Source: a virus. From it: 59,996 bases of DNA. Location of the stretch: positions 1-59,996 of the IMG/VR virus record IMGVR_UViG_3300037264_000454; one strand, written 5' to 3'. The notes beneath the pieces are model-generated. The model did not search any database and had not been told where the DNA came from. It saw nothing but the letters and a program-made list of their open reading frames with translations. Positions 1 through 59,996 of the stretch are shown piece by piece; the stretch's first letter is position 1; each line of letters opens with the position of its first letter. The translations under genes were made by a program, and so were the position numbers.

Positions 1-320
1 CGAGCCGCCGCCCCTGACGGGGGCCGAGCCGTAGGCCGTGACCGTGGCCGAGCCGTAGGCCGTGACCGTGGCCGAGCCGTAGGCCCTGACCGTGGCCGAG
101 CCGTAGGCCGTGACCGTGGCCGAGTCGCAGGCCGTGACCGTGGCCGAGTCGTAGGCCGTGACCGTGGCCGAGCCGTAGGCCGTGACCGTGGCCGAGCCGT
201 AGGCCGTGACCGTGGCCGAGCCGTAGGCCCTGACCGTGGCCGAGCCGTAGGCCGTGACCGTGGCCGAGTCGCAGGCCCTGACCGTGGCCGAGTCGTAGGC
301 CGTGACCGTGGCCGAGCGGT
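1..320 (-). repeat. 24-bp tandem repeat array, left part
   Basis: About twelve copies of a 24-bp unit (plus-strand form gccgagccgtaggccgtgac plus cgtg), with one degenerate copy at the extreme left. On the minus strand each unit encodes the octapeptide TVTAYGSA, with variants carrying R for the second T, D for G, or C for Y. All substitutions keep the frame, so the repeat is coding. The same array closes the right end of the window. Confidence 0.95.
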
Positions 321-417
321 AAACGTCAAACCAACCATCACCGATGATGGCAATCAGTTCGCCCGTGTTCTTCTGCAGCGCCGCGTCGAGCTGCTTCTGC
401 GTGCGTACCTCAATCAT
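1..417 (-). CDS. Repeat protein, N-terminal part (continues at the right end of the window)
   Basis: Minus-strand ATG at 417 with GGAGAAGG seven bases upstream; it overlaps the previous stop as ATGA. The first 34 residues begin MIEVRTQKQLDAALQ and lead into octapeptide repeats (S-A-T-V-T-A-Y-G/D) that run off position 1. The frame rejoins the frame at 59383-59996 if the missing junction is 13 nt plus any multiple of 24 nt, which also restores the repeat phase. I therefore treat the two pieces as one gene. The full protein would be an N-terminal cap, at least 20 octapeptides and a C-terminal domain. Similar 'ATVTAYGSATVRAYGSA' proteins occur in actinobacteria and their phages, and I recall them as DUF7666-linked; the function is unknown. 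The repeats probably form a regular beta-solenoid-like stalk (inference). Confidence 0.85.
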   Translation of the reverse strand, partial: MIEVRTQKQLDAALQKNTGELIAIIGDGWFDVYRSATVTAYDSATVRACDSATVTAYGSATVRAYGSATVTAYGSATVTAYGSATVTAYDSATVTACDSATVTAYGSATVRAYGSATVTAYGSATVTAYGSAPVRGGGS

Positions 418-719
418 GCTGTCGCCTTCTCCCGGTCCTCAAGCGAGCGCCCCAGTTCGGCAAGGAACGCCTCAGCGCCGCCGGTCTGCCACCACGCCAC
501 GAAGACGGCGCGCGGCGTGATGTAGTTGCTGCCCTTGCCGCCGATGCGCGTCGACGGAATCGCACCCGTGCGCCAGCCCGCGTAGACGGTCTGGATGCCC
601 AGGCCCATCACCGCCGCGATCTCGGCAGCGGTGACGGGGTCGGACAAGCGGGTACGGGCGTCGGCGATGGTCTGTTCGACTAGGGCGGTGACGAGGGCGG
701 ATTCGTAGGTCGCGCTCAC
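414..719 (-). CDS. Small HTH protein, excisionase/MerR-like
   Basis: 101 residues from GTG at 719 (the GTGA overlap with the upstream stop and a GGAGGTGG ribosome site decide the start). Residues about 30-75 read as a winged helix-turn-helix: VTAAEIAAVMGLGIQTVYAG, then a GAIPSTRIGG turn and a tail resembling the 'wing' of excisionase-type DNA-binding domains. It is likely a DNA-binding regulator or recombination accessory factor. It lies directly downstream of the IS110-like protein and upstream of the repeat protein in the same coupled operon. No partner integrase with a catalytic domain was found, so an excisionase role is only one option. Confidence 0.6.
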   Translation of the reverse strand: MSATYESALVTALVEQTIADARTRLSDPVTAAEIAAVMGLGIQTVYAGWRTGAIPSTRIGGKGSNYITPRAVFVAWWQTGGAEAFLAELGRSLEDREKATA

Positions 720-1771
720 TTGCCACCTCCGGCGAGCCACAGGTCGCGCAAGACTTCCTTGCCGAGTAGCCGCAGCGCCGCCGCGTTCTGGTGCGATGGC
801 TTCCACGGCGATCCCTCTGGCGCTGGCTTGCCACTTGGCCCGCAGCGGACGCAGGGCTGCGCGTGTACGCGGTCTGCGTAGCGTTCGCGGGCCTTGTCGT
901 AGAACAGGCGGTAGTGCGGGTCGCCGCACTTCATCAGCGACACGGCGATGAGGTAGACCTGCTTCTTGGCGTTGGGGCTGCCCAGCCGCGCGGCATCCTC
1001 TGCGCTCATGCCGGTGTGCTTGCGCCGGTTGGGGTCGCCGTGGCCGCAGTACGACCAGAGGTCGGATACGCGGCGCTCATACGGCCCGTCGTCAATCAGG
1101 GTCCGTTTCTCGCCGCTGCCTTCCCAATGGTGCCGCGTCGTGTGGACGGGATGCCCCGTCTGCCCAAGCAGGCGCGCGAGCGACTTCTCGCCCAATCCCT
1201 TCGCCGCTACCTGCCACGCGATGATGTCGGGGTCGACGACGCGCAGGTAGCAGGCGATGAGTGACTTGAGGATGTCTTTCTCGGTGCGCTTGAGCGAATC
1301 GAGCATGGCCGCGAACTGCGCGAAGTCGACATCCGACAGGGCGATACGGTTGCCCTGTCGGATGCGCTCCTGCTCCGCGTCGTTCAAGGCTTCTGCCCAG
1401 ACGCGCAGGTCGAGGTATCCAGCGGGGGCGGAGTGAGGCTGGGTTTCGCAGCTCGCTTGGCCCCCGCTGGAATCTTTGACGACGGCGCGTGGACGGTGGG
1501 TTTCGCTTGCCGTTTGGCCGTCGTCAAGAGTGGTGCCGCTGGCGGCAACCCGGTGGGTTTCGCTCGATCCTTGGCCAGCGGCAGTAGTTGAAGGACGGGG
1601 CGGTGACGGGCTGGGTTTCGCGATGACCCTGGCCCCGTCCTTGTCTTTGGCCCCGCGCGGAGTACTTATGGGTTTCGGTCTCTCAATGGCGCGGGGCTTA
1701 CTTGAAGGCCGGGGCGGGGTGGGAATGGGCTTCGCTAGTGCCATGGCCCCGGCCAAACTTGCGGCGCTCAC
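716..1771 (-). CDS. IS110 transposase C-terminal-like phage protein
   Basis: 351 residues from GTG at 1771 (GTGA overlap). The first ~120 residues are Pro/Ser/Thr/Lys-rich and are encoded by a hairpin array (see 1418-1754). The folded part resembles the C-terminal domain of IS110/IS116/IS902 transposases. It has a helix-hairpin-helix-like GLGEKSLARLLGQTG, then RRVSDLWSYCGHG, then LGSPNAKKQVYLIAVSLMKC, then DPHYRLFYDKARERYADR, and a terminal LLGKEVLRDLW helix. The IS110 N-terminal DEDD (RuvC-like) nuclease is absent, so this is not a full transposase and no IS ends are visible. A Cys pair (PCVRCG) is inserted before the last helix. Possibly a domesticated nucleic-acid-binding protein. It sits in the recombination part of the early operon. 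The family assignment comes from motif order, not a search. Confidence 0.55.
   Translation of the reverse strand: MSAASLAGAMALAKPIPTPPRPSSKPRAIERPKPISTPRGAKDKDGARVIAKPSPSPPRPSTTAAGQGSSETHRVAASGTTLDDGQTASETHRPRAVVKDSSGGQASCETQPHSAPAGYLDLRVWAEALNDAEQERIRQGNRIALSDVDFAQFAAMLDSLKRTEKDILKSLIACYLRVVDPDIIAWQVAAKGLGEKSLARLLGQTGHPVHTTRHHWEGSGEKRTLIDDGPYERRVSDLWSYCGHGDPNRRKHTGMSAEDAARLGSPNAKKQVYLIAVSLMKCGDPHYRLFYDKARERYADRVHAQPCVRCGPSGKPAPEGSPWKPSHQNAAALRLLGKEVLRDLWLAGGGK
1418..1754 (-). repeat. Array of six hairpins with variable stems and constant 30-nt loops
   Basis: Six inverted-repeat units at a 57-58 bp period. Stems (left/right): 1418-1429/1460-1471, 1476-1486/1517-1527, 1534-1543/1574-1583, 1591-1601/1632-1642, 1650-1658/1689-1697 and 1707-1715/1746-1754. 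Each stem is a perfect 9-12 bp match, yet the sequence differs from unit to unit. Every loop is exactly 30 nt, has TGGGTTTCG (TGGGCTTCG in the last) at loop positions 11-19, and ends in TG. One inter-unit step is 58 rather than 57 bp, so units 1-3 and 4-6 are translated in different frames (S-E-T-H-R versus A-K-P-x-P). This argues for selection on DNA or RNA structure rather than on peptide. Confidence 0.9.
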
Positions 1772-2211: not shown

Positions 2212-2783
2212 TCACTGCCTCCGTTGTCGTCGCCCTCAGGGAACAGCGCGCCGAAGTCCTCGTCGGTGCCGTCGTCGGCCTCTGTGCCGTCGTCGGCGCC
2301 CTCTGCGGCTGCGGAGTCGTCGGGCGGCTCATCGTCGCCTGACGGGGCTGTGGTGGGCCCAGGGGCGGTATCCTTGCCCTTCGCCGTGGGGACAAGCGTG
2401 AATGTCTGCTTCGTCCGGCCGATCTGCGCCTTGAACTTGAGCGGCTTCGTGAGCTCCGGACTGCCCTTCACGCGGATGCAGAGGCCGTCGTCGGCCAAGC
2501 CGCTCGCATCGGGGGCGGGGTAGAGGGTGATCTTGTGGCCGCCCCAGTCGTCGGACTCGTCGCCGAACATGGCGCGGGCGCAGACGCCGTTAGTGAGTAC
2601 GGCAGGCATCTTCTTCGGCGTCTCCCTAAAGTGCCAGACGGGCATGGACTTCTCGCTGGCGCTGCCCTTGCCGAGCAACTCCTGCGTCACCGGCTCCTCG
2701 GCCCGGAACGTCAGCGTGTACGGCTTGCCCTTGAAGTCGGCCGCGTAGATGCGGTCCTTCGGGTACATGTCGGAGAACTTCAC
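2208..2783 (-). CDS. Acidic-tailed phage protein, SSB-like partner of the nuclease
   Basis: 191 residues. The N-terminal ~120 residues match a pattern I know from phage proteins next to RecE-type nucleases: MKFSDMYPKD, then an ADFKGKPYTLTF strand, then FGDESDDWGGHKITLYP and a basic IRVKGSPELTKPLKFKAQ strand. The last ~55 residues are strongly acidic (D/E/G-rich), like single-strand-binding protein tails that recruit partners. I infer a role as DNA-binding partner in phage recombination. It overlaps the PD-(D/E)XK nuclease by ATGA. The start at 2783 is the only good one. Confidence 0.6.
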   Translation of the reverse strand: MKFSDMYPKDRIYAADFKGKPYTLTFRAEEPVTQELLGKGSASEKSMPVWHFRETPKKMPAVLTNGVCARAMFGDESDDWGGHKITLYPAPDASGLADDGLCIRVKGSPELTKPLKFKAQIGRTKQTFTLVPTAKGKDTAPGPTTAPSGDDEPPDDSAAAEGADDGTEADDGTDEDFGALFPEGDDNGGSE

Positions 2784-3586
2784 GATGACAACACCTCGAT
2801 TTCGATTTCGTCACTGGGGATCGGATACGCCCACGACGGCAGCCACAGCGGCGCCTCGCGTGGACATTGACCCGGCCAACTGCGCCGTTTCCGGCACCCG
2901 GCCAGCAGGTGGAGCAGTTCGTAGACTTGGTCGCGGCCCATGTCGAGCGTGTCTTCGTCGACGGGGAAGACTGCGACGTCGTGGGGTGCTTCGGCTTCGA
3001 CCGCGATGATGTAGACGGGCCGGTCGATGCCCAGGGCGCGCAGGCCGTTGCTATAGAAGGCCAGTTGCCCGACATAGTTCATACGCGCGACCACGCCGCC
3101 GAAGATGCGTTGGTCGATGTCGCCGGTGGTTTTCAGGTCGAACATGCCGAGCGGGCCGACGAAGTCGAGACGGGCCTTGCAGCGGATGCGGGTCTGCGGA
3201 TCGATCCAGACGATGGACTGCTCCGCCTTGCCGCGCCGTAGCAGTTGCCGGGCGCGCTTGTGGCCGCGTACGGCGTCGCGTACGGCGAGCGCCTTCTCGT
3301 ACTCGGCGGTCTTGAGGATGGTCTTGTCGGCGTTGGCGGCGGCGAACTCTTTCCACTCGTTGCCGCGACGGTCGCCGTTCGTGTAGACGGTGAACTCGAC
3401 GGGGAAGCGATCGGGCTCCAGGACGGCCGAGTGGACGGCGCGACCGAAGGCCATCGCGGGGTTGTCCGTGCGCGGCGTCGCGAGCCGGTGCCGGTAGTGC
3501 TTCGGGGACTTCGCCAGTTCCTTGAGCGTGCCCCAGTTCACGGCGCGGATTGCGGCGTATTCGTCGTAGGATTCGCGTGGGCTCAT
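2780..3586 (-). CDS. RecE-like PD-(D/E)XK exonuclease
   Basis: 268 residues from ATG at 3586 (AGGGAGGGG ribosome site, ATGA overlap). Features of the exodeoxyribonuclease VIII/Cas4-like nuclease fold: FGRAVHSAVLEPDRF (the conserved GxxxH helix), then CKARLDFVGPLGMFDLKTTG, which carries the R-x-D and D-x-K-T active-site pairs, then YVGQLAFYSNGL (the Q-x-x-x-Y helix). It is expected to resect DNA ends for single-strand annealing recombination. With the neighbouring 191-aa protein it likely makes the phage recombination pair. No RecT/Redbeta annealase was recognised. Confidence 0.85.
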   Translation of the reverse strand: MSPRESYDEYAAIRAVNWGTLKELAKSPKHYRHRLATPRTDNPAMAFGRAVHSAVLEPDRFPVEFTVYTNGDRRGNEWKEFAAANADKTILKTAEYEKALAVRDAVRGHKRARQLLRRGKAEQSIVWIDPQTRIRCKARLDFVGPLGMFDLKTTGDIDQRIFGGVVARMNYVGQLAFYSNGLRALGIDRPVYIIAVEAEAPHDVAVFPVDEDTLDMGRDQVYELLHLLAGCRKRRSWPGQCPREAPLWLPSWAYPIPSDEIEIEVLSS

Positions 3587-57705: not shown

Positions 57706-58334
57706 ACCAGCGGCCCGATTTCGCCGTCCAGGTAGCGGGTGAAGAGTTCGCGCTGTTCGTCCCGCGCCGCGCCCCGCGCCGCGCCCCACGCCGCGCCCCA
57801 CGCCGCGCCCCACGCCGCGCGCCGCGCCGCGCGCCGCGCCGCGTCCCACGCCGCGTCCCACGCCGCGCCCCGCGCCGCGTCCCACGCCGCGTCCCACGCC
57901 GCGTCCCACGCCGCGTCCTCAATTCCTCCGGTGCCGAACTCGGCGAAGCCGGTGAGTAGGTCAAGAATCGCTCCGTAGAACTCGCGTTCGTCGTCGTCCA
58001 CGAGATAGGCGACGCGGCGGGCGCAGTCGATGGCGAACATCCGCAGCGTGTAGTCGGACCATGCGGGAACGCGCCTCACCAGCCGAGCCTGCTCCGCGCA
58101 GGACTTGTCGCTACCCTTGACGACCTCGCCGCGTACCTCGATCTCGTACAGGTCGGGGCCGTAGTGAACCAGCAGGTCGAGCGGATCGTCGCAGAAGTGA
58201 TAGCCGCTATCGCACGGCACGGCGGGCACCTTCGGAATCCACTTGCCGGGACGCTTGCCGTGCGGCATGTAGTCGGAGTAGTCGCCGTGTCCGTAAGCTC
58301 CAGTGGTGCCGTTCATTGTCTTGTACAGTTTCAT
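57702..58334 (-). CDS. DUF7666-like protein with Ala-Trp/Arg-Asp repeat region
   Basis: 210 residues, ATG at 58334. N-terminal ~115 residues ([40 protein letters not shown]) are the same sort of domain as the C-terminus of the junction-spanning repeat protein. Residues ~145-195 are a 4-residue repeat (AAWD, AAWG, AARD) from a 12-bp DNA repeat at 57763-57922. Such repeat regions vary in copy number. Unknown function. Confidence 0.75.
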
Positions 58335-59386: not shown

Positions 59387-59996
59387 ACCGCCACCTCCCC
59401 CCCATTGATGTCGACCTCGTACACAGGGCGACAGGCGGCGCGGAAACGGATCTTGCCCGTGTCGCCGTCGGGGTTGGGGTGTCCAAGATCGGCCACCTTG
59501 ATGGGAACGGCGACGAAGTGCGTGCCGGACTCGTGATACCACTGCGCTTGAGCCGGCGACGCGCATCCGTGCAGGCCGCGTCCACAGTCACGGGGGGCGG
59601 CGTCGAAGTCGGACGCCACGGGCTTGCTGCCGGGGCTGTAGTCGGTCTTGTACGGCGTCGTCCACTCGTCGTCGACGCATTTGTAGAGGGTGACGACGCC
59701 GCGCTTGGCGGTGACGCCGTGGTAGTCGAGCCAAGCCTGCGGGGTGTCGATGTGCGGCGGGGTGATGATGACTCCGCCGATGATCGTCGCGGCCGCGCTC
59801 AATCTGTGGACTGCGGTGTATGGAGCGGCCGTGACCGTGGCCGAGCCGTAGGCCGTGACCGTGGCCGAGCCGTAGGCCGTGACCGTGGCCGAGCCGTAGG
59901 CCGTGACCGTGGCCGAGCCGTAGGCCGTGACCGTGGCCGAGCCGTAGGCCCTGACCGTGGCCGAGCCGTAGGCCGTGACCGTGGCCGAGTCGTAGG
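59383..59996 (-). CDS. Repeat protein, C-terminal part (DUF7666-like domain)
   Basis: Open from 59996 through about seven octapeptide repeats to 59830, then a short linker (AAPYTAVHRL) and a ~135-residue domain: AWLDYHGVTAKRGVVTLYKC, DYSPGSKPVASDFDAAPRDC, GRGLHGCASPAQAQWYHESG and VYEVDINGGEVAV. It joins the piece at 1-417 (see there). Similar domains accompany this octapeptide repeat in actinobacterial and phage proteins. Function unknown. Confidence 0.85.
   Translation of the reverse strand, partial: YDSATVTAYGSATVRAYGSATVTAYGSATVTAYGSATVTAYGSATVTAYGSATVTAAPYTAVHRLSAAATIIGGVIITPPHIDTPQAWLDYHGVTAKRGVVTLYKCVDDEWTTPYKTDYSPGSKPVASDFDAAPRDCGRGLHGCASPAQAQWYHESGTHFVAVPIKVADLGHPNPDGDTGKIRFRAACRPVYEVDINGGEVAV
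59827..59996 (-). repeat. 24-bp tandem repeat array, right part
   Basis: Seven copies of the unit seen at 1-320, on the same strand and coding the same octapeptide. The window stops mid-unit (after ...gtcgtagg). The true copy number across the junction cannot be read here. Confidence 0.95.

What the first reader, a model, noticed from the sequence alone, without database searches (positions are those of the whole stretch)
1418..1754. Six covarying hairpins with fixed 30-nt loops inside a gene
Every stem is a perfect 9-12 bp inverted repeat, but the six stems differ in sequence, so pairing is kept while sequence changes. All loops are exactly 30 nt and share TGGGTTTCG at the same place with ~9 variable bases on each side. 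One 58-bp step puts units 1-3 and 4-6 in different reading frames, so the peptide is not what is conserved. The array sits immediately 5' of the conserved domain of an IS110-C-terminal-like protein. I do not know a described element with this architecture. Candidates: RNA guides or scaffolds used by the IS110-like protein (loosely reminiscent of bridge RNAs, which also use loops with variable arms), folded single-stranded DNA sites, or an origin or regulatory structure.
Basis: partly seen in the sequence, partly recalled or inferred. Interest (0 to 1): 0.9.

Follow-up and report, generated by a model that had tools for sequence, protein, structure and literature searches.

The report
Phage TIGR-Tas stem-loop guide RNA array
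The six hairpins are a phage guide-RNA array with two 9-letter guides per hairpin, next to the Nop-domain protein (TasA) that should carry them; this is the stem-loop form of the TIGR-Tas systems described in 2025, so a new member of a known kind, with relatives in cultured mycobacteriophages where the guides change fast while the hairpins stay fixed.

Summary
Six perfect 9-12 bp hairpins with exactly 30-nt loops lie at 1418-1754, and their stems truly covary. Read on the minus strand, the strand of the adjacent IS110-C-terminal-like gene, every unit has the grammar stem-CCA | 9-nt spacer A | CG-AAAC-CCA | 9-nt spacer B | CG-stem. This is the stem-loop form of a TIGR (Tandem Interspaced Guide RNA) array published by Faure et al. 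2025 (PMC12045711). The protein scores above the curated cut-off of NCBIfam NF052498 (TIGR_Tas), and its AlphaFold model (pLDDT 94) matches TasH and TasR first and the IS621 recombinase next. No nuclease domain was detected, so it is a TasA. Most likely mechanism: TasA plus hairpin tigRNAs bind about 18 bp of DNA, one spacer per strand, without cutting. New here: 83 public phage records carry this Tas family, mostly Mycobacterium phages. In 15 of them the tas gene is 97% identical and the stems 94-100%, but the spacers only about 40-50%. No natural target was found in the genomes searched.

The parts
1707..1754 (-). TIGR unit 6 (first in the transcript): 9-bp stem; spacer A 1743-1735 TGGCACTAG; loop repeat 1734-1726 CGAAGCCCA; spacer B 1725-1717 TTCCCACCC
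1650..1697 (-). TIGR unit 5: 9-bp stem; spacer A 1686-1678 TTGAGAGAC; loop repeat 1677-1669 CGAAACCCA; spacer B 1668-1660 TAAGTACTC
1591..1642 (-). TIGR unit 4: 11-bp stem; spacer A 1629-1621 GGGTCATCG; loop repeat 1620-1612; spacer B 1611-1603 GCCCGTCAC
1534..1583 (-). TIGR unit 3: 10-bp stem; spacer A 1571-1563 AGGATCGAG; loop repeat 1562-1554; spacer B 1553-1545 CCGGGTTGC
1476..1527 (-). TIGR unit 2: 11-bp stem; spacer A 1514-1506 AACGGCAAG; loop repeat 1505-1497; spacer B 1496-1488 CCGTCCACG
1418..1471 (-). TIGR unit 1 (last in the transcript): 12-bp stem; spacer A 1457-1449 AGCGAGCTG; loop repeat 1448-1440; spacer B 1439-1431 GCCTCACTC
716..1420 (-). tasA: conserved Nop-domain protein (phrog_4285 'transposase'; NCBIfam TIGR_Tas), 234 residues modelled; no nuclease domain detected
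1421..1771 (-). open N-terminal extension of the tas frame running through the whole array, from GTG 1771 (GTGA overlap with the upstream stop); no ATG/GTG/TTG in frame between the array and the conserved domain except TTG 1387 inside the first helix
1768..2211 (-). upstream ORF, 147 aa, no family match at 0.001; its stop overlaps the possible tas start
2780..3586 (-). PDDEXK / exonuclease VIII-like gene (DUF3799), about 1 kb upstream; in cluster-A mycobacteriophages an exonuclease also lies close to tas

Best explanation
The locus is a TIGR-TasA system of the stem-loop type. The minus strand carries six hairpins and, directly downstream, tasA. The transcript is probably cut in the 4-9 nt linkers into single hairpin tigRNAs of about 48-54 nt. 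A TasA dimer holds each RNA by its two box D/box C pairs: CG...CCA at the stem end, and CG-AAAC-CCA, closed by one G-C pair, in the loop. The two 9-nt spacers then pair with opposite strands of one adjacent target of about 18 bp. No nuclease domain was found, so the complex should bind, unwind and bend DNA and block transcription or replication there rather than cut it. The likeliest targets are competing mobile elements or host loci, since no spacer pair matches its own phage. Shown here: array, grammar, covariation, strand, protein family, fold. Inferred from the literature: expression, processing, dual-strand targeting. Unknown: the targets.
For: NF052498 TIGR_Tas 119.9 bits, cut-off 100; 34 of the 36 mycobacterial genomes with any match to this model stay far below its cut-off. 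PDB sequence hit TasH E 2.2e-5. AlphaFold pLDDT 94.1, pTM 0.86; Foldseek top 11 are all TasH/TasR, E 4e-7 to 3e-5, then IS621. Chosen without looking at stems, 242 loop motifs lie near tas on the tas strand in 34 loci, against 7 on the opposite strand of the whole loci; stem pairs 3-8 are Watson-Crick in 71-85% (27-37% after shuffling) with all four pair types; both 9-nt spacers carry at most 0.1 bit per position, while CCA and the box D G carry 2.0 bits. 15 mycobacteriophages: tas DNA 96.6% identical, stems 94-100%, spacers 39-53%.
Against: No RNA data. No natural target was found: 167 units against own and each other's genomes gave no more matches than control pairings, and exact targets of window units were absent from IMG/VR (units 5 and 6) and from public phages (weak test). 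In the window the array has no stop in the tas frame, which a purely non-coding array would not need, although other loci do have stops.
Confidence: 0.93

Rival explanations
1. An IS110-family insertion element with bridge-RNA-like hairpins that guide its transposition.
For: The C-terminal half resembles IS110 (IS621 is the next Foldseek hit); phrog_4285 is named 'transposase'.
Against: The protein has no DEDD catalytic domain (no Pfam match even with the extension). It scores over the Tas cut-off. Units come as multi-copy arrays with different spacers, and the gene sits at a conserved place in many phages rather than as a mobile copy.
Confidence: 0.03
2. The hairpins work as folded single-stranded DNA or as protein-binding DNA sites (origin, attC-like sites).
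For: Perfect palindromes could extrude; a DNA-binding role is annotated for some relatives ('HTH DNA binding').
Against: Units lie almost only on the tas strand (242 against 7), the loops carry box C/D motifs that pair in the known tigRNA structure, and the most variable positions are exactly the two 9-nt spacers, which a binding site would not need.
Confidence: 0.02
3. The guides act on RNA rather than DNA, like box C/D snoRNAs or an antisense regulator of phage or host mRNAs.
For: The Nop domain and box C/D layout are shared with snoRNPs (PMC12045711); no nuclease was found and no DNA target identified.
Against: Characterised Tas RNPs act on DNA, and TasR did not cut RNA (PMC12045711). No fibrillarin-like or RNA-modifying partner was seen in the genes searched around tas.
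Confidence: 0.06
4. The array mainly encodes the variable N-terminal tail of the Tas protein and the hairpins are secondary.
For: The frame is open through the window array and in L017 (574 aa), Gordonia phages and others.
Against: Units change frame by one base at the 58-bp step; arrays near tas in L037, L048 and L051 contain tas-frame stops; in cluster-A phages the array is intergenic; stems covary and the peptide does not.
Confidence: 0.03

Closest known systems
TIGR-Tas, stem-loop arrays with TasA (Faure et al. 2025, PMC12045711; Peromyscus gut contig with 13 stem-loops)
   Same: Nop-only TasA; tandem hairpins with variable palindromic stems; [quoted passage not shown] units separated by short linkers, near tas.
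   Different: Here the loop repeat is fixed in length and nearly in sequence (CGAAACCCA), as in dual-repeat arrays; six units in one block; boxes are CG...CCA rather than UG...CCA; the array lies in an open frame continuous with tasA.
TIGR-Tas, dual-repeat arrays (TasR, TasH, FpTasA)
   Same: 9-nt spacer A, loop repeat, 9-nt spacer B; A-rich tetraloop between box D and box C in the loop repeat.
   Different: No shared edge repeat of fixed sequence; each unit is closed by its own palindrome.
IS110/IS621 transposase with bridge RNA
   Same: Nop-like RNA-binding domain; guide loops with two arms that pair with opposite DNA strands.
   Different: No DEDD domain detected, no single bridge RNA, multiple guides.
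Box C/D snoRNP (Nop5/Nop56/58)
   Same: Nop fold and box C/D pairs flanking guide segments (from PMC12045711).
   Different: No K-turn or fibrillarin partner seen; expected target is DNA.

Membership tests
TIGR-Tas | Effector is a Tas Nop-domain protein | tested here: met
   NF052498 119.9 bits against cut-off 100; TasH PDB hit; Foldseek TasH/TasR first.
TIGR-Tas | Array of tandem units next to the tas gene | tested here: met
   Six units ending at the first codons of the conserved domain, same strand; same association in 34 loci.
TIGR-Tas | Two spacers of 8-12 nt per unit, variable within the array | tested here: met
   9 + 9 nt, at most 0.1 bit per position over 181 units.
[quoted passage not shown]
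   CG...CCA at both the stem end and the loop repeat in all six units.
TIGR-Tas, stem-loop subtype | Variable but palindromic sequence in place of the edge repeat | tested here: met
   100% paired, 7 of 9 pairs with double changes; 242 motifs in relatives.
TIGR-Tas | Array transcribed and processed to Tas-bound RNAs | not testable with these tools
   No RNA data.
TIGR-Tas | Spacers direct binding to opposite strands of DNA | not testable with these tools
   Target searches were negative; binding needs an experiment.
TasR / TasH subclass of TIGR-Tas | RuvC or HNH nuclease domain | tested here: not met
   No Pfam nuclease match in the 351-aa frame; hence TasA.
IS110 transposase | N-terminal DEDD catalytic domain | tested here: not met
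   No Pfam DEDD transposase match in the full frame; the transpos_IS110 model did not match the window protein.

The most novel reading that the evidence does not exclude
Phage TIGR-TasA arrays may be diversifying guide cassettes: hairpin scaffolds stay fixed while the paired spacers are replaced in place or exchanged between phages, and in some phages guide hairpins lie inside the coding sequence of their own effector, as in two Gordonia phages. This would mean an unknown way of acquiring or swapping 9-nt guides without Cas1/Cas2-like proteins.
Probability: 0.4. Interest if true: 0.75.

Novelty: new member of a known kind. Interest (0 to 1): 0.45.

Why it matters
The locus adds a clean example of a stem-loop TIGR array in a phage related to actinophages, and shows that the same system sits unrecognised ('transposase', 'HTH DNA binding', 'hypothetical') in many cultured phages of M. 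smegmatis and Gordonia. The native targets of TIGR arrays and the source of their spacers are open questions (PMC12045711). These phages can be grown and edited in laboratory strains, so both become testable. Fast spacer change on a fixed scaffold argues that the guides are under selection to keep changing.

Tried and rejected
Rfam search: only weak chance-level matches. Fold of the plus strand: lower free energy than the minus strand but the same z-score, so folding alone does not decide the strand; relatives place the units on the tas strand. DNA similarity in phages at 700-2250: none. Targets: own genome of the window, all loci, 24 genomes or loci with 167 units in two real and two control pairings, IMG/VR for units 5 and 6 in one pairing order, public phages for all six window units in one order and for eight mycobacteriophage units in both orders (in the positive control, a perfect 18-mer in a 30-nt query scores E 0.6, so in these longer queries it would lie near the limit of 10 and the negatives are weak), 396 Mycobacterium genomes for one conserved unit in both orders. 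All negative. Selection for an open frame through arrays: not general. IS110 element: rejected for lack of a DEDD domain.

Full report
What is there. The six hairpins exist as described and are far beyond chance: six in the region against a mean of 0.002 in 2000 shuffles. On the six units alone all stem cells pair, seven of nine stem pairs carry changes on both sides, and no shuffle or slide reaches this.

Reading frame and strand. The neighbouring IS110-C-terminal-like gene is on the minus strand. On that strand every unit reads: stem ending GGC (CGC in unit 5), CA, nine variable bases, CGAAACCCA (unit 6: CGAAGCCCA), nine variable bases, C, then G and the rest of the stem. CCA and CG thus stand at the stem end and again in the loop repeat, where G and C can close an AAAC tetraloop. 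The tas frame is open through the array. Its only usual start codons between the upstream gene's end and the conserved domain are GTG 1771 (overlapping the stop of the upstream ORF), TTG 1756 and ATG 1744; TTG 1387 would cut into the first helix. The modelled domain starts just where the array ends.

What it is. The protein matches phrog_4285 (4.5e-46), a PHROG named 'transposase', and NCBIfam NF052498 TIGR_Tas above its cut-off (1.4e-34). The PDB search finds TasH. The AlphaFold model from 16 window and locus sequences has pLDDT 94, and Foldseek lists TasH and TasR chains first, then IS621. No nuclease or DEDD domain is found. Faure et al. 2025 (PMC12045711) describe TIGR arrays of two forms; the second consists of tandem stem-loops with variable palindromes, two 8-12 nt spacers and box C/D motifs, their experimental example having a TasA. 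The window fits that description point by point.

Relatives. A scan for the unit (boxes, loop repeat and two further stem pairs) found 46 stretches in IMG/VR; 30 of 67 distinct matches have at least four further stem pairs against 0.36 expected. A grammar scan of all loci found 226 units and none in reversed sequence. A Tas profile finds the gene in 38 of the sequences held, and 242 loop motifs chosen without regard to stems lie near it on its strand, against 7 on the other strand; stem columns show all four Watson-Crick types with 71-85% pairing where shuffles give 27-37%. The two spacers have essentially no positional information while the boxes are invariant.

Cultured phages. tblastn finds the protein in 83 phage records, 76 of them Mycobacterium phages. 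BPBiebs31 gp74 has a 337-bp upstream gap that I read as five units (three found by script, two by eye). Rich, BENtherdunthat, Spooky and prophiFSAT01-1 have units too. Among 15 of these phages the tas DNA is 96.6% identical and the stems 94-100%, but spacers A and B of units 1 and 4 only 39-53%; spacer pairs recur in different combinations, as if exchanged. In the two Gordonia phages hairpins also sit inside the Nop-domain coding sequence, with stems shared and spacers different. The Faure paper cites a mycobacteriophage review but its text names no mycobacteriophage array, and the literature search found no other paper joining the two; their supplementary table was not readable here, so these phages may already be listed there.

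How it works. By the published mechanism for TasR and TasH, the RNA is bound by a Tas dimer and the spacers pair with the two strands of an 18-bp target. For a TasA, binding without cutting is the natural reading. Which element is targeted is unknown. 167 units show no self-target above control pairings, so self-regulation through perfect targets is unlikely; partial matches were not excluded. Other negative searches are listed under tried and rejected, with their limits.

Verdict. What may be new is the natural variation of spacers in culturable phages and guides nested in coding sequence; neither is proven to matter.

Noticed in passing
window 1-321 and 59827-59996: The same 24-bp tandem repeat (CGAGCCGTAGGCCGTGACCGTGGC) fills both contig ends, so the contig probably closes through a repeat array.
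   Followed up: no
window 57761-57915: 12-bp tandem repeat CCCACGCCGCGC, 13 copies, 93% matches.
   Followed up: no
L190 3634-3970; L234-L247: Intergenic TIGR stem-loop array in mycobacteriophages next to a gene annotated transposase / HTH / hypothetical; spacers hypervariable, stems fixed.
   Followed up: partly
L192 3383-3499; L196 about 3380-3500: Two guide hairpins inside the Nop-domain coding sequence of the Gordonia phage tas gene; stems shared, spacers and hence peptide different.
   Followed up: partly
L042 2500-3190 (IMGVR 3300036790_000270): Array of 37-nt period with alternating GCCCGGC/GCCGGGC edges, each able to pair with either neighbour: looks intermediate between stem-loop and dual-repeat arrays.
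   Followed up: partly
L035, L069, L167: Related arrays share stems and some spacer pairs but differ in others; L167 is in an Acidimicrobiaceae MAG.
   Followed up: no
L242 and L243, last unit of the array: In Marsha and Sorpresa spacer A and the reverse complement of spacer B overlap by 4-5 nt and change together, whereas the published arrays show no obvious covariation of A and B (read by eye).
   Followed up: no
L017 10440-12164: 574-aa frame with about 17 hairpins read through in frame upstream of a Tas domain that also passes the Pfam Transposase_20 cut-off.
   Followed up: partly
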